Shown here one piece after another: positions 4,021 through 48,911 of a DNA stretch of 49,204 nucleotides. Every line of letters begins with the position of its first letter. The first letter of the stretch is position 1. The position numbers and the translations under genes were made by a program. Under the pieces are notes generated by a model, which made no database searches, had not been told where the DNA came from, and was given only the letters and a program-made list of their open reading frames with translations. The DNA comes from Parasitella parasitica (lineage: Eukaryota > Mucoromycota > Mucoromycetes > Mucorales > Mucoraceae): assembly GCA_025201805.1 (NCBI GenBank), contig MU619255.1, positions 263,083-312,286 of the forward strand, read 5' to 3'.

Positions 4021-6039
4021 ATGCCTCTCCCAAATTATCACATAATCCCATCAGCAACAGCGAAAAAAGAGGTTTTGAAGGTCATTTTAGATGAGCCTCG
4101 TCTTTACGTCGAAGAATCATTGGGATCAGTCATGGTTCGAGGTGAAGTTATAGTCAATTTCCCTAGAGATACTCAAATACAAGGTCCCATTGAATTATTG
4201 TTTGAGGGTATTCAACGATTTCAGCCATGGTCATGTAAGTTTTTGTGTTGTGCATGATTCGTTTGATAAGAAACACTGATAGATCTCATAGTGATCATGC
4301 GTGGTGCACCGACTGGCTCTTCAATTGAAACCAAACTACAGGTTGTTGAGTTGTCACTATTGCCTCCAAATTCCAAAGGAATAATGCCTGCTGGCACACA
4401 GCGATTTCCATTTGAATTCCCAATTCCTGCTTCATTACCTACATCAGTGTATATCAAAGATCGACTCGAAATCTTTTATCAGATGAGCGCGACTCTTTCC
4501 CGCTCATCTCGAAATGACATTGATAATAATGACGCTCTAGTAAATCCTATCCATTGGGTAGATTGGGCTCGTCGAAATACTATATTTAAAAAGAAGTATA
4601 CTGCCTGCTCACCGTTAAGAATTGTTCGTGCTATGGAATCAATTGTTTCAAATGGTTTACCGGCGGTAACAACAACAGCAGCAACAGCAGCAGCAGCAAC
4701 CACAGGAACAATATCAGCAGTAACTTCCAATACAAACACACCTTTATCATCATCAAATGCAGAACCAACAGAAGAGTCTGAAGCGGAGACTGCCAGTATA
4801 CCAATTAGTCAACGTAGCGTGCAGCCATGGAATCGACGTGGCTTGGATGCCTATCAAGGGACGTACGACGAACAGCATGATCAGCTGGCCTCATCATTTG
4901 CAGGCCGAGCTTCGGGCAATCTAAATCAGCCAATTCACACTTTGAGTGGTGTCGAAGGAATTCGATACAAGATTAGCGTTGATCGTACTGCTATTGCTCT
5001 TGGTACAAGTATCGGTGTTGAATTAATGATTGAGCCTGTCTATACAGATGCTGTCATCAAATCTGTTCTCCTTAAGGTCGCTGAAACTCGTAGATATGCC
5101 ATGAAGGTGCCTGCTGGCCATACTTGGGACAGCAATACGCCTGAAACCAAGAAAATGAATGAAGCGGTTACTTTGGTGCTGAAATGGGCCGACGGCTATC
5201 AATTTGAAGACGAAGAAGACGAAAGTCGTGTCCACAAGCAAAGCAAGTCTTCTTCCTCCAACAAAAAAGGTGAACGGTATCTTCATCAACGTGTACAGAA
5301 TAGCCAATATTTAGCTTATTTTGATCCGCCATTGCCTGGCTGTCCTGAAGGCAAGCAATTTCTCAACAGTACGTTTGACAAGAAGAAGAAATTCGTTGGC
5401 GAAATGCAAGAACATGAAGCCTCTTCCTCTACGGCTGATCGAGATATGGTCAATCTCAAGGAATTAAATCAACCTATCAAAGTGGGCGAGTATTTCGGTG
5501 GTCGCTTTGTGGTACCTATGCCAGACTGCTCCCATATTTTACATCCTAGTATGGACTATGAGTCTATCAAAATTAGTCATTGGATGCAACTGGTTGTTAG
5601 CATCGAAAGCAACGGGAAAACATTTGATCTGCTCTTAGAATCGCCTGCTCGTATCTTGGATTGCCGTTTAGTAGCTGATGATGAGTGTCAGACGGTTTTG
5701 CCTCCTCCTCCATCCTACCAGCCAGGCGATGGTCATCTTTATCATGAAAATAATTGGTCACAAAGCACTTTTTGGGAGCAAAGAGAACCCATTACCTTTG
5801 TCTCAGGTTGGGGATCTTGTGTGCCTTGTCCCTGTGAATACAAGAAATTAAAAGCGGTGAATGCATCGAAGAAACCTCCTTCTAGACTCCAAGTAAGATA
5901 CGGTACCACCACAACCAGTCCAAGCAACGGCAAAGGCAGTGGCAACAACAACAACAACAATAATCAAAATAATGCTGACAGTTGTCCCTCATCTCATTTG
6001 CCTGAATGGGGACCACCTCCTTGCTACTCTGAAGATTGA
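4021..6039 (+). CDS. Arrestin-related trafficking adaptor with two PPxY motifs
   Basis: Exons 4021-4234 and 4292-6039 (57-nt intron, GTAAGT...CATAG, phase 1) encode 653 aa. The N-terminal half has an arrestin N fold (about residues 10-150: EVIVNFPRDTQIQGPIELLF, then PFEFPIPASLPTS, a hallmark of arrestin_N). An arrestin C-like domain (about 230-470) follows a low-complexity T/A/S-rich linker. PPSY at 544-547 and PPCY at 647-650 are PY motifs that recruit WW domains of Rsp5/Nedd4-type HECT ubiquitin ligases. By family knowledge such proteins (yeast ART/Rim8/Bul type, animal ARRDC) bring the ligase to plasma-membrane transporters and drive their endocytosis. The tail also has an N-rich homopolymer. 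Which yeast ART it corresponds to cannot be said by eye. Confidence 0.88.
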
Positions 6040-7163: not shown

Positions 7164-8216
7164 ATGAAAAGATTCGAAACCACGGCAGAAAACAAACCGG
7201 GAAAGGGGATTGTGATATGTTCCTGCTACAATGAACGCTCCAAGTTCGAACGTATACATGCCCAGTATCCACTCAAATTTATTCCTACCACGGGGCATGC
7301 AGATCGTTTGGCAGTAGTGTACATGTTGAGCTACGGTGGTGGGGTCATCAGTGGTGACACTTTTTCAATCGAAATGACGGTCAACACAAATGCCATTTTG
7401 CTACTAATGACACAAGGCAATACCAAGATCTTTAAAGATCGTGTGCACCAGAGACTTTGGCTGGCATCTCTACAGCAACAGCAATCCAGTGTGCCTACCA
7501 TTTCGTTTTCCAGTCTGTTGCCCTCGTTAGATACCATTACAGGACTATTTAAGACACCAGAGCCGCCCAAAAAAGTAGCACCTTCAGTACAAATCATCAA
7601 TTCCATGGTAACAGCGCAGGCCACACTATTAGTGATCCCCGATCCAGTGACCTGCTTCCGCGATTCATCATTTCAGTCAAAACAGCTCTTCGAATTACAG
7701 GACGATTCATCGCAATTAGTACTGCTGGATTGGTTTACAAGTGGTCGTATTACTCGAGGCGAGAGCTGGTCTTTTCGCCATTACTCCAGTCGCATCGACA
7801 TCAAAATTGCTGGAAAATGGGTCATCAAGGACGCCATGGTGTTGGAAGACGAACAGTACATGAAACGTTTGGATCCCAGAGTAGAGGATGAAACAGCTTA
7901 TGCTGCCCGTTTGAAGCCGTACTTGTGTTTTGCAACTTTGGTCATCATTGCAAAATCAAATGGCTCGTTAATGAAGAGTGTGGACCGAATCCAGCGGAAA
8001 TCTGAGGAAATGAGATTGTTGCCACTGACGCTGAAATCAGACGAGGATAGAAAAGTGCTGTGGTCTGTGAGTCCTATTCTCAAGGGCAGAGGTGTGCTTG
8101 TGCGTGTGGCTGGCATGACAACAGAGCAAGTGAGGGATTTTGTCAAGCTAGAGTGTCTGAAGGAAGGGTTAGTTGGGATCATTGGCGACGGCATGTTTAG
8201 TAAAGTGCTTGTGTAA
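7164..8216 (+). CDS. ureD: Urease accessory protein UreD (UreH)
   Basis: An intronless 350-aa frame. The N-terminal third carries the UreD hallmark SYGGGVISGD (about residues 55-64), followed by LLLMTQGNTKIFK, matching the family's LTTQGxTKVYK stretch. The middle shows VIPDPVTCFRDSSF and the conserved LVLLDWFTSGRITRGESW. UreD is the scaffold that binds apo-urease with UreF and UreG and delivers nickel to the active site, so this organism should make a nickel urease. Length is slightly above bacterial UreD (about 270-300) because of an insertion with a Q run near residues 105-140, common in fungal members. Fungal urease genes are usually unlinked, and no other urease gene is nearby. A TATATATAA-like element sits directly before the ATG. 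Confidence 0.93.
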   Translation: MKRFETTAENKPGKGIVICSCYNERSKFERIHAQYPLKFIPTTGHADRLAVVYMLSYGGGVISGDTFSIEMTVNTNAILLLMTQGNTKIFKDRVHQRLWLASLQQQQSSVPTISFSSLLPSLDTITGLFKTPEPPKKVAPSVQIINSMVTAQATLLVIPDPVTCFRDSSFQSKQLFELQDDSSQLVLLDWFTSGRITRGESWSFRHYSSRIDIKIAGKWVIKDAMVLEDEQYMKRLDPRVEDETAYAARLKPYLCFATLVIIAKSNGSLMKSVDRIQRKSEEMRLLPLTLKSDEDRKVLWSVSPILKGRGVLVRVAGMTTEQVRDFVKLECLKEGLVGIIGDGMFSKVLV

Positions 8217-9299: not shown

Positions 9300-10569
9300 C
9301 TAGACGAGGCCTTGATCTTTCATGACCTGATAAGCTTACAAAGTGAGTATACAAAAAAGAATAGACTCAATTCATTTGCTTTTACCTGATACATGGTAGC
9401 ACCAATCTTGGCAGGAGAGGGAGTAACTACAACTCCTGCTCTCTCAAGTGCCTTGACTTTATCACTTGCTCCTTCTTTTCCACCAGATATGATTGCACCA
9501 GCATGGCCTATGTATCCATTGATATTGGCAAGTCAGCAAGGCAAAAATCAAATAAAAATACCCATTCGACGTCCTGGAGGCGCCATCATGCCAGCAATGA
9601 ACGAAACAACAGGCTTTGGCATGTATTTTTGTTTGAGGTTGTAGTCTTTTAAAAACGCAGCAGCGTCTTCTTCAGCTGAACCGCCAATTTCTCCTATTAG
9701 AACAATACCCTCAGTGTTTTTGTCGTGAAGCAGCACCTTTAAAACGTCAATAAAGGTAGCGCCATTCAGAGGGTCACCCCCAATTTCAATGCACAGCGTT
9801 TGTCCAAGCCCAGCATGGGTTATTTGTTGCACTGCTTCGTAGGTCAACGTACCTGATCTAGATACGACGCCTATTTTACCCTGTCGGATGATGCTGCCGG
9901 GCATGATGCCGATTTTACACTCGCCAGCGCGGATCAATCCAGGGCAATTGGGCCCTACCAGACGACTTTTGCTTTGCGTCAGCAACGCTTGCTTGACACG
10001 CATCATGTCACGTATGGGAATGCCTTCTGTAATAGCCACAATGAGTCCGATATCGGCCTCAACAGCTTCCATAATGGCCTCAGCGGCAAACGGTGGTGGT
10101 ACGTATACAACAGACGCATCTGGCTTGGTTTCATTAACAGCCTACATCTGCATTTAGTATTTTTGGTTGACATATGCGTGCATTTGCTTGCCTTCTGTAC
10201 TGAACCAAATACTGGTAGTCCTAAATGTGTTGTACCAGCCTTTTTGGGTGATACACCACCGACCATCTTGGTGCCGTATTCGATAGCTTCTTCCGAATGA
10301 AATGTGCCCTAAATGTTTACATGCATATAAGCTGTGAATGTCACACATGCATGATCCCACAATACAAGAAAGTCTACTTGTTTACCAGCAAAGCCTTGAC
10401 TAATAACTTTAGTATTTTTGTTCACTAGCAAGTTCTTCAATGTAGATTCGTAGCTGCTAGTGGTTAATTGCCTGACTAAACTCCAGTGTGGTTAGACGTA
10501 TGTATAACAGCATGTTTCATCCAAGTTTGTACTACTTTTATTAGCCTGCTTGATTGAATTCTTGAGCAT
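9300..10569 (-). CDS. LSC1: Succinate-CoA ligase alpha subunit, mitochondrial
   Basis: Six exons in transcription order: 10569-10536, 10475-10378, 10308-10192, 10141-9562, 9507-9386, 9326-9300, all frame-consistent, giving 325 aa. The start MLKNSIKQ is a plausible mitochondrial presequence. Motifs in order: [16 protein letters not shown] (CoA-binding Rossmann half), [60 protein letters not shown], and RMGHAGAI, whose His is the residue phosphorylated in catalysis. The enzyme interconverts succinyl-CoA and succinate with NDP/NTP in the TCA cycle, paired with a beta subunit encoded elsewhere. The intron 10191-10142 uses a GC donor (GCAAGC) with a normal AG; the other introns are GT-AG, 54-69 nt. 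Length matches yeast Lsc1 (329 aa). Confidence 0.95.
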
Positions 10570-26454: not shown

Positions 26455-27830
26455 TTATTTAGAGCGTCGTTTAATGTCATTATAATTAACTACTCTGCGA
26501 GATCGGCGACGACGGATACGTTCATATCTGTAAAATAGATTTGCAATGTCCTATGTGATAATATTGATCAGCTGATTCAATTCGGCAGGTGTGCTATTTC
26601 GTAGTATTTACCTTTGCAATTACAAATAAACATCCACCTAGTACATTTCTTTGTAACGTTTCTGGAAAATGGCGTCTTATGAATTTAGAATGGCTCAGAT
26701 AGCTATTTATAAAATTTAGTTGACGGTTCTACCAGGCAGCTACATCAACAAATATCTAACCTTCCTACAATGCTGCTAATGGTAGGCCAGAGCAATGCGC
26801 CTATCACAGTGACACTCATATCACGACCTTCTCTACCGAATAAAACTTCTGTGTCTTGATCTGCGCTTCTATCTGTATTATCCTCAATGTCAATCTCATC
26901 CACTGCTGTTCTTCTTCTGGGCTGAGAAGGCCGATGATTTTCATTTGTATTTACATTGTTTATGCTGTTGTTGTTGTTATTGTTGCGAATCAACGATCGT
27001 GAGACTCTCTTTTGCAAGAGCGAATAAATGTTATTGTAAAATAATCTGACCCAAGGCAATAGACCAAACATAACAGCCGGAGATGGCGGCCATGTGATTC
27101 TCAATGGGTACGAGATGCCAGTAATACGTAACAATAATAACGTCGCAGCTGGCAACACATTGTCAGCCCATTTTGAACGAGACGCTATCAATGCAACAGG
27201 AATTGATGGTAATCCGAGCCACGTTCGCCAAGTCCAGTACGCTGGATTGCCAATTAGTTTTTCTCCTTCCTTTGTGCCAAACAAAGTCAACACTGCATAT
27301 GCGCCAAATGTAGTAGACGTAATCAACATGGAACACCCTAGACCCAATACGGTGATGTAAGGAGCAGCTGTATGTACAAGGCTGTCAACAATACTCATCA
27401 AAACAAGTGGTATACTGTGAGTCTCGGATAACATGTATGTTGAGTTACATTGAGGACAAGACACTTTCTTCAATGGGGTATTCTTTTGGGTTTCTGCAAT
27501 CCAATCCAGTAGACATTGCTCGTGAGATACTAGTGAGCATTGACAGGGATTGACCCATCTTCCTTCAGAGTCTGTATCTTCTCCAAAACAAATCCAACAG
27601 CGCTTGTCATTGTTGGCATTATAGACGTTACTAGCGGCAGAAGCTGCAGTATTGTTGTAGTTATGAATAGTTGTAACGTTGGCACTACTCGAACTTCGAC
27701 TGGTATTGGTGCTGGAATATTCTTCATCTTCTACAGATAGTTGGCTTTCATCTAAGCCTGAGATTGGCTGATACCCGTACAGGCCAGCTTCTTCAACGAG
27801 AGTTGAGCTTGGGCAGCGAAAATGTGACAT
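26455..27830 (-). CDS. Membrane RING-CH E3 ubiquitin ligase (MARCH-type)
   Basis: Exons 27830-26761, 26675-26612 and 26550-26455 give 409 aa. The start is the ATG at 27830; the frame upstream is AT-rich leader. After a Ser/Asn-rich N-terminus, residues 78-130 form a C4HC3 RING-CH finger: CWIC, then CQC, H-x2-C (HEQC) and CPQC. Hydrophobic segments follow (about 140-165, 170-195, 225-245, 280-300 and after 375), so the protein sits in a membrane with several spans. This architecture resembles MARCH5/MITOL of the mitochondrial outer membrane, which ubiquitinates fission and quality-control proteins, but ER-type MARCH6/Doa10 relatives are much longer. The tail is very basic (RIRRRRSRR). An N run and an acidic stretch (DEIDIEDNTD) lie in a loop. 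Organelle assignment is inferred. Confidence 0.88.
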
Positions 27831-28739
27831 ATGATTTATTGTTGGAAACGAGAGCAAAAAAAAAAAAAAGCTTAGATATTCGTGTGAAAAATACAAAACG
27901 GAATGCAAAGAAAAAAATATTGGAGATTTTCAGTGTTTTGCCAAAAAAATTGGGGTCTAATCCATTTTTTTAATTCTTCATGTTTGTTCTCCCATCAGAC
28001 TCTCGTATTTAAAGTTATGGCGATCGAAGCCTTTTTTGGTGAAATCAGTAACAGCCATAGCTATCTAATGTTTCTAGCAAGAATATCTCTGCTTCGAAAC
28101 TTAATTATACCATCATATTGAGGAACGATACTTTTAAGATGCGATGATATGCTACGCAGTGGTTCTTCACAAGGATATACCGAATATCCGTATCATTTGA
28201 TGCCATCATCATTACCTTGAGCGTAAGGATAGATTAGTGTTGTGTTTTACATAGCTTCGGAATGAGTTTGGTGCGTGAATCGTACACATCACGAAAATAA
28301 TATTTATTTTACCAGATTCGTATTAACAAAACATAATTTCGAAACACTCGTTCAATACTGATAGTAAAAGGCAATGTTCTTGAAGTAATTGCCATTTTAT
28401 TTAACAAAATATAAAGATCAAGTAAACAAAACGCCTTTTAATTTTCTATATTTCCTTACGAAATCCTGTACATTATCTATATATTATTTCTAGTAAAGGA
28501 TGGAAGCTTTCTGTACGTTTTTAATTTTGTTAACTCATCGCTTGCAATGTTAGGGAGATGCGTTCTCAAACATAGTAACTTTTATAGACAGGTTTGACAT
28601 CAAGCTGCTCAGAGCGTCAAATCGCTTGATTGAAATGATGCCCTCCTAAGCGTATTTTGTTGCTATTAAGAAAGAGTTCAGCGCATATAAAATTCAATCA
28701 AGCAAGATCGTCTATAATTGTTGGTGTGCAGACGCATAA
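27831..28739. other. Gene-free stretch upstream of the MARCH gene
   Basis: A 13-A tract lies at about 27857-27869 in the leader. The rest is AT-rich with no supported gene. Confidence 0.5.
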
Positions 28740-30318: not shown

Positions 30319-30390
30319 TTCCCCAACGGGGAATTGAACCCCGGCCGCGTCGGTGAGAGCGACGAATCCTAGCCACTAGACCATTGAGGA
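30319..30390 (-). tRNA. tRNA-Glu-CTC: tRNA-Glu (anticodon CTC)
   Basis: The minus strand gives a 72-nt cloverleaf. Acceptor TCCTCAA pairs with TTGGGGA (one G-T pair), discriminator A. The D-loop has TCTAGTGGCTAGGA; the anticodon stem CGTCG/CGACG closes loop CTCTCAC (anticodon CTC, reading GAG); the T-arm is CCGGGG-TTCAATT-CCCCG as in other eukaryotic Glu tRNAs. Six T follow on the minus strand (plus 30311-30316), a polymerase III terminator. No intron. It lies between two transposon relics, a common site type for insertions near tRNA genes. Confidence 0.96.
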
Positions 30391-35468: not shown

Positions 35469-38400
35469 TTATAATCCTCTTAACAATTCCAACTCTGCAT
35501 TCAGTTCATCTTGAGCCTTTTGTTTTGTCTCTGCTTTGTCATTTACTTCTCTTATATCAATCAGAAAATCACGGATATCGTTTTGAAATCGCTGCAAGTC
35601 GCCACTGTATTCAAACATACCGGTAACGAGTACCTCAATCTGATCTTTGTGAAGCAGCGGGAAAACATTACAGAGTAAATCAAGCACATATGTCTGTAAA
35701 AACTCTATGTTGGACATGAGTGGATTGGATACTTGATCTGGATTGAATAGTCTTGTATAGATCTCTCCTTCTTGCACTATCTCAAACATACGAGCAAGGA
35801 TTTGGCTTTGGTAATTGAATCCTATTGCTCATTCAGCACTAGAAATAAGAGGAACTCTTTGGAAGCTTACCGTTTCTACAGTCAGGGTCCACTAGTACTT
35901 CCAATATGTCTGTAAGTATACGTACATAGTAAGTCTCAAAGAATTGACTCGACACATCGTCTTCCATTTGAGATACCTCTCCAACCATGTGGAGACAAGT
36001 CTGAAGTGCAATCTGTGATATTTCTCGCATAGTGTGCTTCGTACCCCACAGAATGCTATCCATGTCAATTTGAAATAATTGTGGCGTTTGGAATAAGTCT
36101 ATAAAGCATCTCTTGTTCAAAACTTTTAAAAGTCGATAGAATTCATGTCGACATTCAGGATAATCTACAAAATTGGATGTAATCATTGGCAATGTAACCA
36201 CATATACAATGTCTATAGTTTCCTCGAGTAAATCCGGCCATATTGGGTCCTAGGAAAGCATTTTAGCAAAAAGAAATACACCAATATTTGAGAGCACTTG
36301 TACCTGCATTTTTTCAAACAAACATGTTAATAACCCAAGCACATTTGGCTCTCGTTGTTCAGGCTTTGTCGAGTTTTTGTAGTCAACTAAAATCACCGTA
36401 ATCAAACTGGTTAGCATGGACTGATCTTGAACATCTAGCTTGTCATTTGAGAGGATAAAAGTCTCGAGTAGTTCTAGGATTAATTGTCTCACACGCAAAC
36501 ACAATTGCACTTGTGGCCAATTATTTTGTATTTTCTGACTAATGCTTGTATAGCACTGTACTAAAACTGGCGTCAAATCCTGTAGTTGTGTTCGAAAGAC
36601 GGGTCCAACAGGTTTAGAAGTCAAAATATTGACTTTTATCATACTAATCATTGCTTTTAACGAGCCAGGAGTATTCGCTACCAGCGATTGTTTGATCTGT
36701 AGTAGTGAACATGGTTAGAATAGCCTATTTTTTTTCCTTCCAAAAGCTCTAGTCGGCTATATACCGTCTCATTAGGTGTCTCCATCAAAGTGCGTACGCA
36801 CTGCTCTTGTAATTGCACATTTGACAATGCTGATATCATGGTTCCTGCTGCTTCGTAAAACATGCATATCTAGATAATCAATGAGTGAGTAAAACGCTCA
36901 ATAAATTTATGACTTTTTATACCTGCTGTGAGTTTAATTGACTAGTTAGTTTCTTCAAATCTGCAAGCACCGTTTCCAGAACAGAGATAGAATGTTCTCC
37001 ATTTGAAAGCTGATGAGATACCACCATTTCACCTTTGCAGCTTTGACATATCTTCAAAAATGAATCACATGCCATTTCTTTGAGACCTTCTTGTGGACAT
37101 TGCATGTACCAAAAAATTCTTTGCAGTAACCAAGATGTAAACGTCCAATTCGACTTTAAAAAATGTGGATACTGGCTAGCAATATATAACATGTTTGACG
37201 CCACAACCCACTGCTGATCACTATTGCCGGCACTTTCTTCTCTCTGCAAAAGATGATACATATCACCAGTCAATAGGGTCTGAAGAAATTGACTTTCTTG
37301 CGGCTCTGAAGTCGCACCCGACATCATGCCAACGGCCCAGCAAACACGAAACAGATGGTCCCACGACCAGGCAGTGTTCTCTCTATCTAATTGCAACTGC
37401 TCAAACTGCTCTCGAATCAAAGACTGGATAAAAATAGGATCGAGGCTTGTAAGCAAACCAAAGATATGTCGCATTGATTTGGATAGTGCAGTTGTATCAC
37501 TCTGTTTGATGAATTCTCGACTAATCTCGCCGTCATCATTCTCAATGACAAATACGTCGTCTGGTTTCACCATGTTTTGAATCATGGTTGAGCAAAGCTG
37601 CTTCAAAATATCATGGTAGGGTGTGGTCTGTCCATGGTTTGCATCTTGGAGTATATCGTACGTCTAAATAAACGAATTAAAAGCTAAAATTTGACCCCTT
37701 CTAGTAATGGCTTTTACCAATTTTCCCCAGTATTCTAAACATATCTTCCATATCTCTCGCTCCGGGACCTGAGAAACCTGTAGCAAATAAACCAGCATGT
37801 CGTGTACGCTAGCCTTTCCTCCGTCTAAGCTCTCTAGAAGCGATCTGTATTTGCAAAGCATGGTTGTTAAGAAAGTAGCCAGCACTTGAATGAAATGTTG
37901 ATCGTAGCTGTCTGATTCAGCATACAGCTTTGCAATGTCCGACTCTTTTGGTATAGTGCTGATTATTTCTGTATAAACAACAGTGCAGACATTGAGAATA
38001 ATATCGCTATATTGCTGACTGTCAATATGGTCTAAGCTTATGATTTCTGCAAAGCACTGAAGGACTAGGTTTCTGTGAGTGCCTTTGATCTATAAACAAT
38101 CGGATCAATCAGAAGCTTCATATCTTTAATAGTTGTGCTTACGTTTGCTTGCAATAGTTGGATCAGATCTTGCTGGTACACAAATTGAACTGGGATCCAG
38201 CATATGAACTTCTGCAAAGTTTCCAAAGTCGCCTTGATTAAATGTGTGTTGGCAGTTTGCTGGGCTAATATTGATTTGCACAGATCGAAAATCGAACCAA
38301 ACTCATTCACCATTTGATCTTTTAATCTATGCATCTTGGCAACTGTCATATGATCCACTGAAAAATCGAACACTTCTTCACTATTTACTCAATGGTTAGC

Positions 38401-42500: not shown

Positions 42501-42581
42501 AATATTCAGAAAAAAAAAATAGTTTAAATAGGCCAATTTTCTTTTTTTTTTCTACATTTTTTTACTTTAACAACTTTTCAG
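39567..42581. other. Three kilobases without a supported gene
   Basis: AT-rich. Two traces are noted but not called. Minus 41420-41365 reads an acidic tail (KLADSDIDDDNMP followed by a stop), which looks like a protein C-terminus without a body. Plus 41828-42040 reads DGCGNHVRPFLVECNY..., of unknown kinship. A run of (CA) lies at about 40909-40920. The last 60 nt are T-rich leader of the SAP gene. Confidence 0.45.
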
Positions 42582-44148
42582 ATGTTTTATAATAATCCTT
42601 CTATTTCACCACCTACAAACAATATGAATCAATTCTCATCTCTAATGGAAGAAGATAGTAATATGAATCTTTTACTTAGTCCATTCGAACCTGATCATAT
42701 CCAGTTGGGATATGCTCATGGTTCCAGCCCTACTCAACCAGAACATATTCAGTTAGGATATGCTCATGATTCCAGCCCTACTCAACCAGATCATATTCAG
42801 TTGGGGTATGCTCATGATTCCAGCCCAACTCAACCTATGATTATTTCAAACCAGAATGGCAATACTGATTTATATGCCAACTCTGAATCGTCTCCCATTG
42901 CTATGCCCAACACAATGTCCAAGTTTAATGCTGCGACATCCTCATCATCGCCTCAGTTTGATATGGTAATTATTAATCCGTTATCAAGAAAAAAAAAAAA
43001 GGATGAAATGTTAATACAATATTGTATCCAGTTGAATAATTTTGCAAATGAGTGTATTTCTCGTTCTCCAGAATCTTCTTCTTCTGCCGACTCCAATTTG
43101 GTTTCACCTCCGCATCAATATTACCCCACTTCAGCAAGCTACCAAGATTTCGTTTGGCCAGAAACAAATGTTAACAATGCCCCTTATAATCCCACAATTC
43201 AAGGGCCATTTCAACACAATTACCATCACAACCATCACCATTCTGGGTTGAAGAGATCGGCTTCTGTGCCACCTCATTTCCAAAAATTCAAACCCCAAAT
43301 TCAAGATGGTATGTACAACCAATTTCAGGTAACACAGATGCAAAAACAATTGCAACATAATCATCAGCATATTCCAATGGCTTCCAAACCATTGCCTATC
43401 CAGATCCAGAGAGTCAATACACTGAGCACAATTACAGTAAAGCCAGCAGATCCCGAGTCTCATCGTCGCCAGTTGGATGAAAAGTTGGAAAAAGTGAATT
43501 TTGATGACATTACCGTAGCTGAGCTCAAGGAAATGTTGAGAGATCGTGGCCTCTCTGCTACTGGCCGTAAAGCTGAACTGATGAATCGCCTGAAAGAGGA
43601 GTACGAATTACTCATGAGAAGAGGTGGTGCTGCTGCCGTTGCTGCTTCTGGTATTCCAGCAACTTGTTCTCGTGCACTCTCGGCATCTCCACTTATTCAA
43701 CGCCGAATGGCTAATATAAACCTTGGTGATTCTCCCAAAAGACAACAGCAAAATCGTTTGTATGCTCCTTACTCTCCTCCTGTGCGCCATTCTTCAAATT
43801 CAATTGCTCAATTGGGTAATCATCGTCTTGCTTCCTCTGTACCAGAGTCGCTGACACAATCATATTTGAATGATCAATTCATGATGAGAAAACCCTCGGC
43901 ATTACGCAAAAGTATTGACGAAGAGAACCAAGAAAGACGTAAAGTATTTGTAATTGATTTTTAAAGATTATCATATTCATTATTTTTTTTTTTTTTTTAA
44001 AAAAAAAATAGAATGGATTCAATCTCTAAGCTCTTCCTCTCCTTCCCAAGGTTTTTATCCTTCTGTGCCCAAGATCGATGAATCTGCTAATATGTTGTCT
44101 GAAGTTTGGGATGATCAAACACTTCAAACTTTCCTTAGCCAGATCTAA
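42582..44148 (+). CDS. SAP-domain protein
   Basis: Exons 42582-43938 and 44012-44148 give 497 aa. The donor is GTAAAG in phase 1, and the acceptor follows a T16/A10 run; only this pairing keeps the frame into WIQSLSSSSPSQGFYPSV. Residues 306-345 form a SAP domain (DDITVAELKEMLRDRGLSAT, then GRKAELMNRLKEEYE), a helix-extended-helix DNA- or chromatin-binding fold. The rest is disordered: N/S/P-rich, with a triple 16-residue repeat near the N-terminus, His/Asn runs and Q runs. A further in-frame interval with good splice ends (42966-43031, GTAATT...TCCAG, 66 nt) would remove a Lys-rich stretch if spliced. A transcription or chromatin factor is likely; the target is unknown. Confidence 0.85.
42693..42836 (+). 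repeat. Three 48-nt tandem repeats in the SAP gene
   Basis: Units start at 42693, 42741 and 42789 and encode (D/E)HIQLGYAH(G/D)SSPTQP three times. Nucleotide identity between units is high, with only a few substitutions. Confidence 0.92.
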
Positions 44149-44996: not shown

Positions 44997-46895
44997 TCAT
45001 GATCGATACATACATAAATAATTGGAGTTTTGATTACTCCAAAACATAGCTGCTCCAATAGGCTATAATAGGCGTATTTAATAGTTGAGTACAGCACGTC
45101 TAATTGAAACGAACATAAAAGAAACTTACTGCAATAGTGCCAATTTGGCCTTCAACTGGCGTGATCACCATCCTCAAAATCCACTCTAAAGGCTTTTCCA
45201 AGTGATGGGGGCTTCCATTCAGAGGCTTTGAGTCGAAAACACTTCCCACATCAGCCCAGGATTTTTGGAGCTGATCCCCTGAACCACGCTTATAAAGATA
45301 AACGGAATTGGCTTTTGTCCATACAGCTAATAACGTCCCATTTGCATTCAATTGCACACCGCGAATATCAGTGGCGTCAAAAGCTGTGTCACTAGGCTCA
45401 ACTGAATCAGGTACCTGCATGGCGTGATAAAACTCATGCAAATAGGCCCCATCACTTGTTTTGTACAGATATTTTTGCTCGTTTTCGTTATTCATCAATG
45501 CGCTGATATTATCTGTAAAGTCTAATGTTTGAAAATCATTTCGAATGAGAGAAACAACCATAGTTTTGGAGTCTTTCGATCGAGAAATGGAGGGAATCGG
45601 CATGTTGACCAGAGTGCGTTCATGATGAAAATGGGCTCCATCAACAAATGCCATGTATTCCAAATTTTCGTCTATAAATGTGGAATCCTGTCGAATAAAT
45701 AAGGTTAATATTATCGTGGGCCATTTCCAGCTATTTCTACTTGCTTTTGTGTTGAGATGATCCCTGAAAATCCATTTGCCCTTCTTTGTGCTTTTATCAG
45801 TTGATCTGAGGACTGTACCATCTGATATTGTAACATTTGTGTGAAATAGATTCTTTGTTTTATGGATGTCCAGTGTGAATACACGATATGTTTCAATGCT
45901 TAAACACAAGAATGTCAATTTTTGAAATTTTTGTACTCTGATCGCTCTACTTACTTTGGAGAGTACAATTTGCATAGTAAATTAACATGGGATTCAGTCC
46001 CTCCTGGCTGATGATAGGCTCTGATAAGGTCTCCTGTTTGTCCTGCTGTTACAGTAATGGTCTTTGAATTCTTTGAGTGAGGAGACGACAAGAAGTTGTC
46101 AGGTAATGCAATGATTCTAAATCTATACAAATCGGGATCGCTGTATTATAACATCTCAATGTCAACAACAAAATAAACGTAAAGATGAATGCTAAACACC
46201 TACCGAGCAAATAATATAGAGTCTTTCTCTAATGAAATTGCGTTGATCATTGTATTTCCAGGCATTAGTATATCCTTGTACTCGAAAGGCGTTGTTGCGT
46301 TATCGTCTGCTAAATAATAAACTCGCACAAAATGCTGGATATTGTCGCTCTCTAGTAGATGATATAATACGGCAAACTGAACAGCTCCACTGTCTTCAGG
46401 ACTCTTTGATACTTTTGTGATTGGGCCGAGAAGCAGATGATTAAAGCATGTTTCCCAATCTACGATGAATTGAAATGCGTTTGATAATGCATGAATAATG
46501 TATTAAATGCTATTCTCACCTTCAGGACCCTCTTTCAAAATGTCGCTTTTCCTCTTCCTTGCTTGAATAACAAGTCCTACATCATCTAGTAAATCCACTA
46601 CTCACTGTTCAATCATTCTGCTAGACTTTTTACCATTGACATTGGTTTTGACGGAATTTACACCATGAACAAAGCCTCTGTTGCCATCCAAGACTGCTTC
46701 ATAGTGGATATGTGTTCTATAGATATATTCATCGTGTTCTGAAAGAATAACTTGCGATGGCTCGTTCAATCTTGAGTGTGTAGGAACGAATGCTTGTACA
46801 ATCACAGGATGAGGGTATGGAGTGTCTTGCAGCAGACTCACCAGATAAATCATGGCAAGTCCAGCTATCAACAATACCAAGACACGCCACTTCAT
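44997..46895 (-). CDS. Type II membrane protein of unknown function
   Basis: Exons 46895-46634, 46576-46520, 46459-46204, 46140-45955, 45898-45130 and 45062-44997 join in frame to 531 aa. Residues 4-22 are a signal-anchor (MKWR then VLVLLIAGLAMIYLVSLL), so the bulk faces the lumen or outside. The rest has many beta-type stretches and aromatic residues (WIFRDHL, VWTKANSVYLYKRGSG), suggesting a beta-propeller-like ectodomain, but I cannot name a family. The last exon depends on a GTAAGT donor; without that splice the frame ends at 45100. One more in-frame interval (GTAGAA...TTATAG near 45740-45670, 69 nt) may be an intron that I left in. Predicted role: secretory-pathway or surface protein. Confidence 0.68.
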
Positions 46896-47104: not shown

Positions 47105-48911
47105 ATGTCTTGTAACTTTCCGCATGATCTCGAACCTTGTCTAGCTCGTCTTGGAACAACGCCAGAAGGTAAAGGTTTATAGTGTATTGAGTAGAAAACC
47201 TTGATGGTAACCAAGCAGAGATGAATAGACAAGCCCGCTTTTATCAAAGAGGTGTATGCAGTAGACGATCTGGAAACACTAAGGCAAATCCTCATAAGAA
47301 AAGAAAGAGAAAGACAAAGCATTGCCAATGATTTAGAAGTAGCAGCCAGAATTGGCCTTGTCATATCAGAGACAAACGAAGCCATTCAAATCAAGGTACA
47401 ATCAAATATAGCTAGTTAGTATAGTAACAATTGCTGATACCATTGTTAGCTCGAACATCTAGAAAGAGAAAACAAAATATTTCAAGATGAATTACGATTA
47501 CGAGCAAACAACACAAAAAAAGACATGAATTCTGCAAGTGTGCCTAATGAAGGCCTACTTTTATCAGAGGAAGAAGAAAAAATTTACCTTACGCAAGAAC
47601 TAGATCAGGCGCGAAGGGAATTGACAAAATTTAGAAAAGAAATGGACGGCTTATCTGCCCAGTTGAATGATATGGCTTCAGAAATGGTTGATTCTCGTTC
47701 AAAAGTCAGTGTTTATGCGAAAAGACTAGCAGAAGTTGAGCAGAAATTAGCGGCAACCAGAGATGTGAATACAAACCTGCAAGCTCTGCTAGATAAAGCA
47801 TTGACTTCGCAAAAACAATCAAGTTCAAATACCTCGCATCTTGTCAAGAACATTCAAATGGATTTATCAAGAGTAGGTTACATCAACTTGTATCGCTTTT
47901 CACCAACATCTAATACCATCAATATCAGGTTGTCTCTGAAAACGAGCAGTTGAGAGCACGTATTGCCGAACTGGAAAACCAGCAGGTTGAATGCGAGGAA
48001 AAATTGGCTGCCATGGTTATTCAGGCACAAGAATATGCAGCCAGATTGGAGCAAGCTCAAGACACAATCCACAGTCTGAGTGAGCCCAAACTACCCGACG
48101 ATGATGATTACCCTAGTATAAATCAACACAGTGGATTCAATTCATTTTCTGTCTCATCGCAAGACGGCACAAAGGAAACAGAGATCACCAAGGCATGTTT
48201 GCTTTTATAAAACGACTATTTCGATTTCATGTAACAAAGTATTGTGTGTGTATATAGGGCCCTGTATTCTCTGCTGAATTCAGGCAAGAAATGCAAAAAG
48301 AAATCGAGCGCAATCTGAACCTAAGGAACGAAATCCGTCATCGCATCATTACAGCCGACTCCAACAATACAGATAAAAAGAAGTCTCAAGAAGGATTGAG
48401 GTACCTCGTATCAGAAAGAGAGAATGCTGGATTAGCTAGTCTTTCTACCAGCACTAGTTCGTCCACTAATTCGTCCATTTTGTCTACTGTCATGAAGAAG
48501 GAAATGATACATACAACAGCAATAGCAGTAACAAACACAACATCTAATTTAAATCAGCATGCGTCCAACGCCATTCATACCAATCTTACATATACTACAT
48601 CTAATAACAATAACCATAGCCACCACCAAACATCACAGCCACAATCACTGGCACCACCATCATCATCGACAGCCGCTGAAGAAGAAACAAAAGCACCTTT
48701 GCTGAGACCAGCAAGCTTTTTAACTGGATTTACTGGGTTTGGCGCAGAAACAGGATTAGGTATTGGCGGTAATTTCATCACAAGAGGTATACCGCCAAGA
48801 GCACTGTCTGCTTCTCGCGGAGATGGACCAAGCATATCAACACGGTTCTTCCAAAGACTAGCCTCGAGACTAGATGATTATGACAAAAAGGTTTCTTCGA
48901 TAAGCAAATAA
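47105..48911 (+). CDS. Coiled-coil protein with CC1 box, candidate dynein adaptor
   Basis: Exons 47105-47168, 47250-47395, 47450-47872, 47929-48192 and 48258-48911 give 516 aa. Residues 28-100 form a coiled coil beginning DDLETLRQIL, with NDLEVAARIGLVISETNEAI at about 48-67. AARIG (53-57) is the AAxxG CC1 box that in HAP1, TRAK/Milton, BICD and Spindly binds the dynein light intermediate chain, and the flanks (KERERQ, DLE.AARIG) look like HAP1/TRAK. Further coiled coils cover about 120-215 and 220-260. Then come an acidic linker, RQEMQKEIERNLNLRNEIRH, a long S/T/N-rich disordered region and a C-terminal block (TGFGAETGLGIGGNF, STRFFQRLASRLDDYDKK) that may bind cargo. The fourth intron (48193-48257) uses a GC donor. 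Function is inferred from the motif and coiled-coil layout; no Hook domain is present. Confidence 0.75.

What the first reader, a model, noticed from the sequence alone, without database searches (positions are those of the whole stretch)
47105..48911. A fungal coiled-coil protein with an AAxxG CC1 box: possible HAP1/TRAK/BICD-like dynein adaptor
Seen: an N-terminal coiled coil containing NDLEVAARIG followed by further coiled coils and a disordered tail with a short conserved-looking C-terminal block. Known: the CC1 box (AAxxG) of HAP1, TRAK, BICD and Spindly binds the dynein light intermediate chain helix, and such proteins turn on dynein-dynactin transport; the best characterised fungal adaptor is of Hook type. 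Inference: this lineage has a second, animal-like class of dynein adaptor. I cannot identify a clear dynactin-binding Spindly motif; LLLSEEEE and VFSAEFRQE are only weak candidates.
Basis: partly seen in the sequence, partly recalled or inferred. Interest (0 to 1): 0.75.

Follow-up and report, generated by a model that had tools for sequence, protein, structure and literature searches.

The report
Fungal CC1-box protein, probable dynein adaptor
A gene shared by moulds of the Mucor group and by root-symbiotic (mycorrhizal) fungi encodes a long coiled-coil protein that looks like a distant relative of the animal proteins HAP1 and TRAK, which hook the motor dynein to its cargo; if confirmed, these fungi have a second kind of dynein adaptor besides Hook.

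Summary
The gene is real: five exons (47105-48911) join into an open frame of 523 aa, 93% identical to a Parasitella protein, with relatives through Mucorales, Umbelopsis, Endogonales, Glomeromycotina, Calcarisporiella and Mortierella. AAxxG is in 57 of 75 family proteins; the other 18 are 17 models starting downstream and one lacking the segment. Its A and G fall on coiled-coil positions d and a, as in BICD2. A fungal profile matches vertebrate TRAK1 (hhalign 90-93%; 0 of 200 shuffled decoys as good) but not BICD2 (6.5%) or Spindly (0.5%). AlphaFold2 gives the adaptor layout: long helix (246 residues unbroken in Geosiphon), break, then a conserved FSxEF block that aligns to TRAK1's Spindly motif. 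The genome encodes the LIC helix (VLANFFQSLL), p25, p27, Hook and Miro. Against: HAP1_N stays below Pfam's cut-off, similarity beyond residue ~95 is not significant by profile, the block breaks the strict Spindly consensus, and LIC contact could not be modelled. Probable CC1-box dynein adaptor; cargo unknown.

The parts
47105..47168 (+). exon 1 (residues 1-21 and the first base of codon 22)
   Evidence: open frame after joining; start ATG; GT-AG intron; LEPCLARLG conserved in Mucorales
47229..47395 (+). exon 2: first helix and CC1 box (pre-CC1 segment DDLETLRQILIRKER, residues 34-48; CC1 box NDLEVAARIGLVISE, about residues 55-69)
   Evidence: AAxxG in 27 of 27 aligned members; hhalign to TRAK1; d/a register
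47450..47872 (+). exon 3: end of the first coil (LExEN segment, to residue 91), variable insertion about 95-118 that holds LLLSEEEE, first part of the long coil (from 117)
47929..48192 (+). exon 4: rest of the long coil to about residue 269 (EYAARLEQAQDTIHSLSEP), then a disordered linker
   Evidence: AF2 helix 117-269, low-confidence break 272-307; residues 254-265 are the most conserved 12-residue window
48258..48911 (+). exon 5: Spindly-like block (FSAEFRQEMQKEIE, from residue 310), GLRYLVSERE block (352-361), disordered tail and C-terminal helix (499-520); stop codon included
   Evidence: residues 309-322 align best with TRAK1 SLAAEIEGTMRKEL, rank 1 of 912; AF2 helices 312-344, 352-361, 499-520

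Best explanation
The protein is a homodimeric coiled-coil cargo adaptor for cytoplasmic dynein-dynactin, a far-diverged fungal relative of the animal HAP1/TRAK group. [quoted passage not shown] the long coil lies along the dynactin filament; after a break, the FSxEF block docks on p25 at the pointed end; and the disordered tail with the invariant GLxxL block binds the cargo. Shown here: gene, conservation, register, TRAK1-specific similarity of about residues 33-97, layout, presence of partners. Inferred: dimerisation, LIC and p25 binding, motor activation, cargo.
For: AAxxG is conserved (57 of 75; the 18 without it are 17 downstream-starting models and one lacking the segment), and of seven heptad registers for residues 50-95 the best (A and G counted as core residues) puts A60 on d and G64 on a, as A43 and G47 in BICD2 (PMC7655957, passages). 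hhalign of 27 fungal sequences against 12 vertebrate TRAK1: 93.4%, E 2.5e-7; on match columns the score is 57.8 against at most 33.0 in 200 shuffles and 21.6 reversed; against single sequences TRAK1 90.2%, BICD2 6.5%, Spindly 0.5%; with residues 56-66 masked 75.5%, score 48.7 against at most 33.2 in 100 decoys. Block 309-322 has its best place in TRAK1 at the Spindly motif, 13.2 against 5.3 for the runner-up, per-position p 2.2e-5; none of 8530 positions in window ORFs reaches it (best 12.3). Distance from AA to the block: median 250 (n=56), TRAK1 245. AF2: unbroken helix 20-265 in the Geosiphon orthologue, break, motif, short helix. LIC helix with the counterparts of L444, F447, F448 and L451 kept; p25 59% identical over 81-179, p27.
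Against: Only about the first 95 residues give significant profile similarity: with residues 1-95 masked hhalign falls to 6.8%, and HMMER profiles of the coil (119-275), the Spindly region and the GLxxL region do not find their counterparts in TRAK1. With only the AAxxG core (60-64) masked the probability is 50.1%, and in the masked runs the two CC1 boxes are no longer opposite each other. In an unbiased scan of all 15-residue windows no TRAK1 match exceeds the highest of 60 shuffles (23.9 against 24.0). HAP1_N is below its cut-off, and generic coil models in NCBIfam reach better E-values (SMC, 31 of 33 members, best 7.1e-7). The Spindly-like block does not fit the strict consensus (S at position 2 in all 69 matches, L at position 1 in 4 of 69), scores poorly on the Spindly motifs of BICD2 (rank 219 of 811) and Spindly (rank 56 of 592), and was noticed by eye before it was tested. 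A search of the own genome with a TRAK1 segment found nothing, though without a positive control; a TRAK1 profile puts the window exon first among held fragments only at E 0.059. No binding or function data were found.
Confidence: 0.72

Rival explanations
1. A Mucoromycota-specific coiled-coil scaffold without dynein function, whose AAxxG segment resembles a CC1 box by convergence.
For: Most of the coil shows no significant similarity to TRAK1; Pfam, NCBIfam and PDB sequence searches give only weak or generic coil matches; no named homologue outside Mucoromycota in the wide sense was listed at E<=10 apart from one record under a plant name (limited to 7985 candidates).
Against: The similarity includes a non-CC1 segment (DDLETLRQILIRKER against NDIDAVTRLLEEKER) and survives masking of residues 56-66; A and G sit on the core positions needed for the LIC cavity; the layout and the distance to the Spindly-like block match TRAK1.
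Confidence: 0.17
2. A protein that binds LIC through the CC1 box but does not activate motility through the pointed end (no true Spindly motif), for instance a tether or a kinesin-side scaffold. This overlaps in part with the best explanation.
For: Strict Spindly consensus not met in any of the 69 block matches; Podila P0060 has no such block right after the coil, its only match (LSSEL) lies further down a longer tail.
Against: The block is among the two most conserved post-coil segments and aligns best with TRAK1's Spindly motif at nearly the same distance; p25 and p27 are present. Of the 6 of 75 proteins without a regex match, five are fragments that begin at or after the block and P0030 lacks its first residues.
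Confidence: 0.2
3. A She3-like adaptor of class V myosin and mRNA, as the database name of one hit (P0045, 'SWI5-dependent HO expression protein 3') suggests.
For: The name given by one source.
Against: No She3 family appears in the Pfam listings of ten members at E<=1 or of the window protein at E<=10; the record bears a plant name although its protein is 80% identical to the Geosiphon one.
Confidence: 0.02

Closest known systems
TRAK1/TRAK2/Milton (animal mitochondrial motor adaptors; Pfam HAP1_N + Milton)
   Same: pre-CC1 segment and CC1 box; long coil; break followed by a Spindly-type block at almost the same distance (median 250 against 245 residues); possibly a short GLxxLLxER block further on (GLVWLLKERG in TRAK1, GLRYLVSERE here; suggestive only, because in the 9-residue test BICD2 and one window-ORF position score higher). 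Compared with vertebrate TRAK1 only.
   Different: HAP1_N below cut-off; no Milton domain in the Pfam listings; no similarity detected in most of the coil; no counterpart recognised for the Miro-binding segment of TRAK1 (residues 394-431, PMC10746525, passages), not tested by computation; F or L then S at Spindly positions 1 and 2
HAP1 (huntingtin-associated protein 1)
   Same: shares the HAP1_N region with TRAK; two fungal members bear UniRef names beginning 'HAP1 N-te...'
   Different: not compared directly: no HAP1 sequence was obtained; same Pfam shortfall
BICD2 and Spindly
   Same: AAxxG CC1 box with A at d and G at a (BICD2); general adaptor layout
   Different: profile similarity absent (6.5% and 0.5%); the Spindly-type block does not match theirs
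Fungal Hook (HookA/Hok1)
   Same: a dynein-dynactin adaptor in fungi; HOOK-family matches over the cut-off are present in this genome
   Different: Hook binds LIC with a globular HOOK domain (PMC7655957, passages); this protein shows no such domain in the Pfam listings and would use a coiled-coil CC1 box

Membership tests
CC1-box dynein adaptors | AAxxG motif in an N-terminal coiled coil, conserved in orthologues | tested here: met
   27 of 27 aligned; 57 of 75 overall, the other 18 being 17 downstream-starting models and P0057 lacking the segment
CC1-box dynein adaptors | A and G of the motif on core positions d and a of the heptad repeat (BICD2 A43, G47) | tested here: met
   register with A60=d, G64=a is the best of seven for residues 50-95 (0.71; next 0.54; A and G counted as core residues); definition from PMC7655957, passages
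CC1-box dynein adaptors | binding of the LIC C-terminal helix | not testable with these tools
   only indirect: the LIC helix is conserved in the own genome
Activating adaptors | long coil of about 35-39 nm ending in a break before the Spindly motif | tested here: met
   Geosiphon orthologue: one helix 20-265 (246 residues, about 36.5 nm at 0.1485 nm per residue, rise recalled), break, motif at 300; length range from PMC9481740, passages. In the window protein the helix is interrupted at 103-116. Monomer models only
Activating adaptors | strict Spindly motif (L, aliphatic/aromatic, X, E, aliphatic/aromatic) | tested here: not met
   69 of 75 match [FL]SxE[FVIL]: S at position 2 in all 69, L at position 1 in 4
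Activating adaptors | conserved block aligned with TRAK1's Spindly motif at the same place | tested here: met
   rank 1 of 912 positions; distance 250 against 245; but the HMMER profile of the region did not find it
HAP1_N (PF04849) | score above Pfam's gathering cut-off (33.9 bits) | tested here: not met
   window protein 9.1 bits; 9 of 33 members reach E<=0.1, best E 3.2e-4; best score among those listed individually 18.7
HAP1_N (PF04849) | specific profile similarity to a member family against decoys | tested here: met
   hhalign to TRAK1 93.4%; on match columns 0 of 200 decoys as good; BICD2 and Spindly not matched
TRAK/Milton | Milton (kinesin-associated) domain after HAP1_N | tested here: not met
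   absent from the Pfam listings of the window protein (E<=10) and of ten members (E<=1)
TRAK/Milton | binding to Miro and kinesin-1 | not testable with these tools
   Miro/Gem1 gene present in the genome; no contact could be modelled

The most novel reading that the evidence does not exclude
A HAP1/TRAK-type CC1-box adaptor was already present in the common ancestor of animals and fungi, was lost in the yeasts and moulds on which fungal dynein work rests, and survives in Mucoromycota, arbuscular mycorrhizal fungi included, where it drives long-range organelle transport (perhaps mitochondria through Gem1, with the invariant GLxxL block as cargo motif) in undivided hyphae; CC1-box-less paralogues in the same genome would act as regulators or dominant partners.
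Probability: 0.25. Interest if true: 0.8.

Novelty: new variant of a known kind. Interest (0 to 1): 0.6.

Why it matters
Dynein adaptors with a CC1 box are known from animals (recalled); a review of dynein activation that uses filamentous fungi as its main example discusses the Hook complex as fungal adaptor in the passages seen and has no occurrence of TRAK or HAP1 (PMC7649786). A conserved CC1-box protein in Mucoromycota would place the origin of this adaptor class before the animal-fungus split or show striking convergence, would give a genetically simple system for it, and would open the question of how cargo is hauled in the undivided hyphae of mycorrhizal fungi. It makes a plain binding experiment possible at once.

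Tried and rejected
Pfam alone: HAP1_N is the family that most members match (9 of 33) but weakly, and it competes with generic coil families; not used as proof. NCBIfam: only generic coil matches such as SMC and Rad50. PDB by sequence, single and profile: no adaptor among the matches. Foldseek against PDB: one meaningless match. Regional HMMER profiles against TRAK1: only residues 25-95 significant (0 of 1000 decoys); the coil 119-275 is reached by 32 of 1000 decoys, and the Spindly region, GLxxL and C-terminus do not find their counterparts. Unbiased all-against-all 15-residue windows: the three TRAK1 hits listed (q77-91 at 23.9, q34-48 at 21.2, q57-71 at 17.7) are in order, but none exceeds the highest of 60 shuffles (24.0). 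GLxxL block and coil end as further homology evidence: rank 1 in TRAK1, but BICD2 scores higher at unrelated places in the 9-residue GLxxL test and the coil-end test, and one window-ORF position reaches TRAK1's score in each; the 13-residue GLxxL version was reached by 0 of 8589 window-ORF positions and was not run on BICD2. Both the GLxxL and the Spindly-block matches were noticed by eye before they were tested. 'BICD-like': rejected. p62 (PF05502): no match, but the control was silent too, so no conclusion. HBS1 (heavy-chain contact): looked at by eye only, no clear QxxY/H; left open. Paper searches bearing on a fungal TRAK/HAP1/CC1-box adaptor: the listings show none (one found no paper; 67 lists 20 of 81, 84 lists 10 of 22); most subscription journals are not held. 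Papers were seen as found passages only, the rest as search listings.

Full report
What is there. The finding's coordinates hold a five-exon gene on the + strand. Exons 47105-47168, 47229-47395, 47450-47872, 47929-48192 and 48258-48911 join into 1572 bases with one terminal stop, 523 aa. Introns are 54-65 bases; three are GT-AG and the last is GC-AG. The nearest database protein is from Parasitella parasitica (93% identity over the whole length), followed by Mucor species, so the model is sound and the genome is Mucor-like.

Family. The first protein search gave 60 proteins at E<=1e-3; a profile of 11 diverse members gave 74 at E<=10. The named ones are Mucoromycota in the wide sense (Mucorales, Umbelopsis, Jimgerdemannia, Glomeromycotina, Calcarisporiella, Podila), apart from one record under the plant name Anthurium amnicola whose protein is 80% identical to the Geosiphon one; the rest are unnamed metagenome proteins. 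Each search scored only the 7985 candidates sharing most words, so absence elsewhere is not shown. Two members carry automatic UniRef names beginning 'HAP1 N-te...' (P0020, P0028), so the databases already hold a hint.

The CC1 box. A60, A61 and G64 are identical in 27 of 27 members of the curated alignment. In all 75 family proteins (window protein plus 74 hits) the pattern AA[RHQ][LIV]G is found in 57; the other 18 are 17 models that start downstream of it and P0057, whose model lacks the segment. It is among the most conserved parts but not the most conserved: these three residues rank 32-43 of 523 columns, and residues 61-72 are the third-best 12-residue window, after 254-265 and 141-152. 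In BICD2 the box creates the LIC cavity because A43 and G47 sit on heptad positions d and a (PMC7655957, passages); here the best of seven registers for residues 50-95 puts A60 on d and G64 on a (fraction of core residues, A and G included, 0.71; next 0.54).

Which adaptor family. Profile-profile comparison of 27 fungal sequences with 12 vertebrate TRAK1 gives 93.4%, E 2.5e-7, over residues 33-97. On match columns the score is 57.8; 100 shuffles of heptad blocks reach at most 31.9, 50 shuffles of 14-column blocks 33.0, 50 column shuffles 22.8, and the reversed profile 21.6. Against single sequences the fungal profile gives TRAK1 90.2%, BICD2 6.5% and Spindly 0.5%. The similarity is not the AAxxG motif alone: with residues 56-66 masked it is 75.5% (score 48.7 against at most 33.2 in 100 decoys), with 60-64 masked 50.1%, with the pre-CC1 segment 34-48 masked 70.8%, with 34-66 masked 62.1% (now on the LExEN segment), and with 1-95 masked 6.8%. 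The masked alignments start at the same place but lose the seven-residue gap, so the CC1 boxes are then out of register. The TRAK-like signal is thus real but confined to about the first 95 residues. Pfam's HAP1_N agrees in direction (the family matched by most members, 9 of 33 at E<=0.1, spanning nearly the whole coil in P0036 and P0054) but stays below its cut-off in every individual listing, and generic coil models in NCBIfam reach better E-values.

Layout. AF2 on the window protein (33 sequences, mean pLDDT 66.3) gives helices 36-102 and 117-269, a break, and helices 312-344, 352-361 and 499-520, with most of the rest disordered. On the Geosiphon orthologue P0043 (18 sequences, mean pLDDT 76.7) it gives one unbroken helix 20-265, a disordered stretch, and a short helix from 302. 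At 0.1485 nm per residue (recalled) the 246 residues are about 36.5 nm; d'Amico et al. report 35-39 nm for the CC1 coil of several activating adaptors, ended by a break just before the Spindly motif (PMC9481740, passages). These are monomer models; dimerisation was not modelled. Foldseek found nothing useful, and PDB sequence searches gave no adaptor.

The Spindly-like block. Right after the break nearly all members that cover it have FSxEF-type sequence: 69 of 75 match [FL]SxE[FVIL]. Of the six without a match, five begin at or after the block and P0030 lacks its first residues; in Podila P0060 the match (LSSEL) lies elsewhere, further down a longer tail. A position-specific score of residues 309-322 has its best place in human TRAK1 at SLAAEIEGTMRKEL, which contains the known Spindly motif (TRAK1 373-379 in PMC10746525, passages): rank 1 of 912, 13.2 against 5.3 for the next place, per-position p 2.2e-5 on shuffled TRAK1, and 0 of 8530 positions in window ORFs (best 12.3). 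I had noticed the likeness by eye before testing it. The distance from AAxxG is a median of 250 residues (n=56, range 217-332) against 245 in TRAK1. Against it: the published consensus wants L and a hydrophobic residue at positions 1 and 2, and the fungal block has F or L and then always S; the block does not score on the motifs of BICD2 (rank 219 of 811) or Spindly (rank 56 of 592); and the HMMER profile of the region did not find it in TRAK1.

Further blocks. The GLxxL block (G352, L353 and L356 invariant in the 33-sequence alignment) has its best place in TRAK1 at GLVWLLKERG, and the coil end at LEDKYAECMEMLHEAQEELKNL, in the right order. In the 9-residue GLxxL test and the coil-end test BICD2 scores higher at unrelated places and one window-ORF position reaches TRAK1's score in each, so I count them as suggestive only. 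An unbiased scan of all 15-residue windows gave three TRAK1 hits in order, none above the highest of 60 shuffles.

Partners in the genome. A DLIC gene on C70 (family matches down to E 2.0e-10) is followed on the same strand by a frame, assigned to it by position, that holds SHEVLANFFQSLLKNSSG, against human LIC1 SEGVLANFFNSLLSKKTG (best PDB matches are LIC chains, E 0.11 for this short query). The counterparts of the residues that enter the adaptor cleft, L444, F447, F448 and L451 (PMC7655957, passages), are all kept. p25 (59% identity over human 81-179), p27 (47% over 32-95), Miro/Gem1 and HOOK-family matches over the cut-off are present. p62 was not found, but the control was silent as well.

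Paralogues. The genome holds two further loci related to the coil (C68 and C80). In the 5-kb stretches the family profile finds the coil from about profile position 97 onwards and the coil end, but no CC1 box; by eye the ORF translations show no FSxEF block, while GLRILL or GLRMLF is kept. If real genes, they have lost both supposed motor contacts together while keeping the coil and the GLxxL block, as one would expect if the two contacts act as a pair. No full gene models were built for them.

Mechanism and confidence. The best reading is a dimeric CC1-box adaptor that binds the LIC helix with its first coil, lies along dynactin, docks on p25 with the FSxEF block, and carries cargo on the tail. 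Conservation, register, TRAK1-specific similarity, layout and presence of partners are shown; dimerisation, binding, activation and cargo are inferred. I give 0.72 to a dynein-adaptor function with HAP1/TRAK kinship, 0.2 to a LIC-binding protein that is not a full activator, and 0.17 to a coil without dynein function; the first two overlap. Because a formal family cut-off and the strict Spindly consensus are not met, I do not file it as a HAP1_N or TRAK member; it probably works like a CC1-box adaptor and is probably a distant relative.

Novelty. Eight paper searches listed no report of a fungal CC1-box or TRAK/HAP1-type adaptor; two of the listings were cut (67: 20 of 81; 84: 10 of 22). A review of dynein activation that uses filamentous fungi as its main example discusses Hook in the passages seen and has no occurrence of TRAK or HAP1 (PMC7649786). 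The library leaves out most subscription journals.

Noticed in passing
L023 1875-2775 and L024 1867-2773 (own genome, C68 and C80): Two paralogous loci with the coil and a GLRxL[LF] block but without a detectable CC1 box or FSxEF block in the stretches read.
   Followed up: partly
L008 (own genome, C10, about 291960-292640): A second DLIC-like gene besides the one on C70; the stretch beyond reads N, so its C-terminal helix could not be seen.
   Followed up: no
window 48193-48257: Fourth intron of the gene has a GC-AG border (GCATGT...TAG).
   Followed up: no
P0061-P0064: Four Mucorales gene models of 1206-1309 aa hold this protein together with a 3'-5' exonuclease domain (PF01612), perhaps fused models of neighbouring genes.
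   Followed up: no
P0045: A family member filed under the plant Anthurium amnicola and named after She3 is 80% identical to the Geosiphon protein; probably fungal material in a plant sample and a misleading name.
   Followed up: no
window 46602-46895: A minus-strand frame with an N-terminal membrane helix (MKWRVLVLLIAGLAMIYLVSLL) starts about 210 bases upstream, head to head with the gene.
   Followed up: no
window 7164-8213, 26745-27929, 36917-37663, 9548-10141, 4270-6036, 42528-43961: Other frames match UreD, a RING-variant domain, CRM1 exportin repeats, succinyl-CoA ligase, arrestin and SAP domains; tRNA matches at 1838-1919 and 30319-30390.
   Followed up: partly
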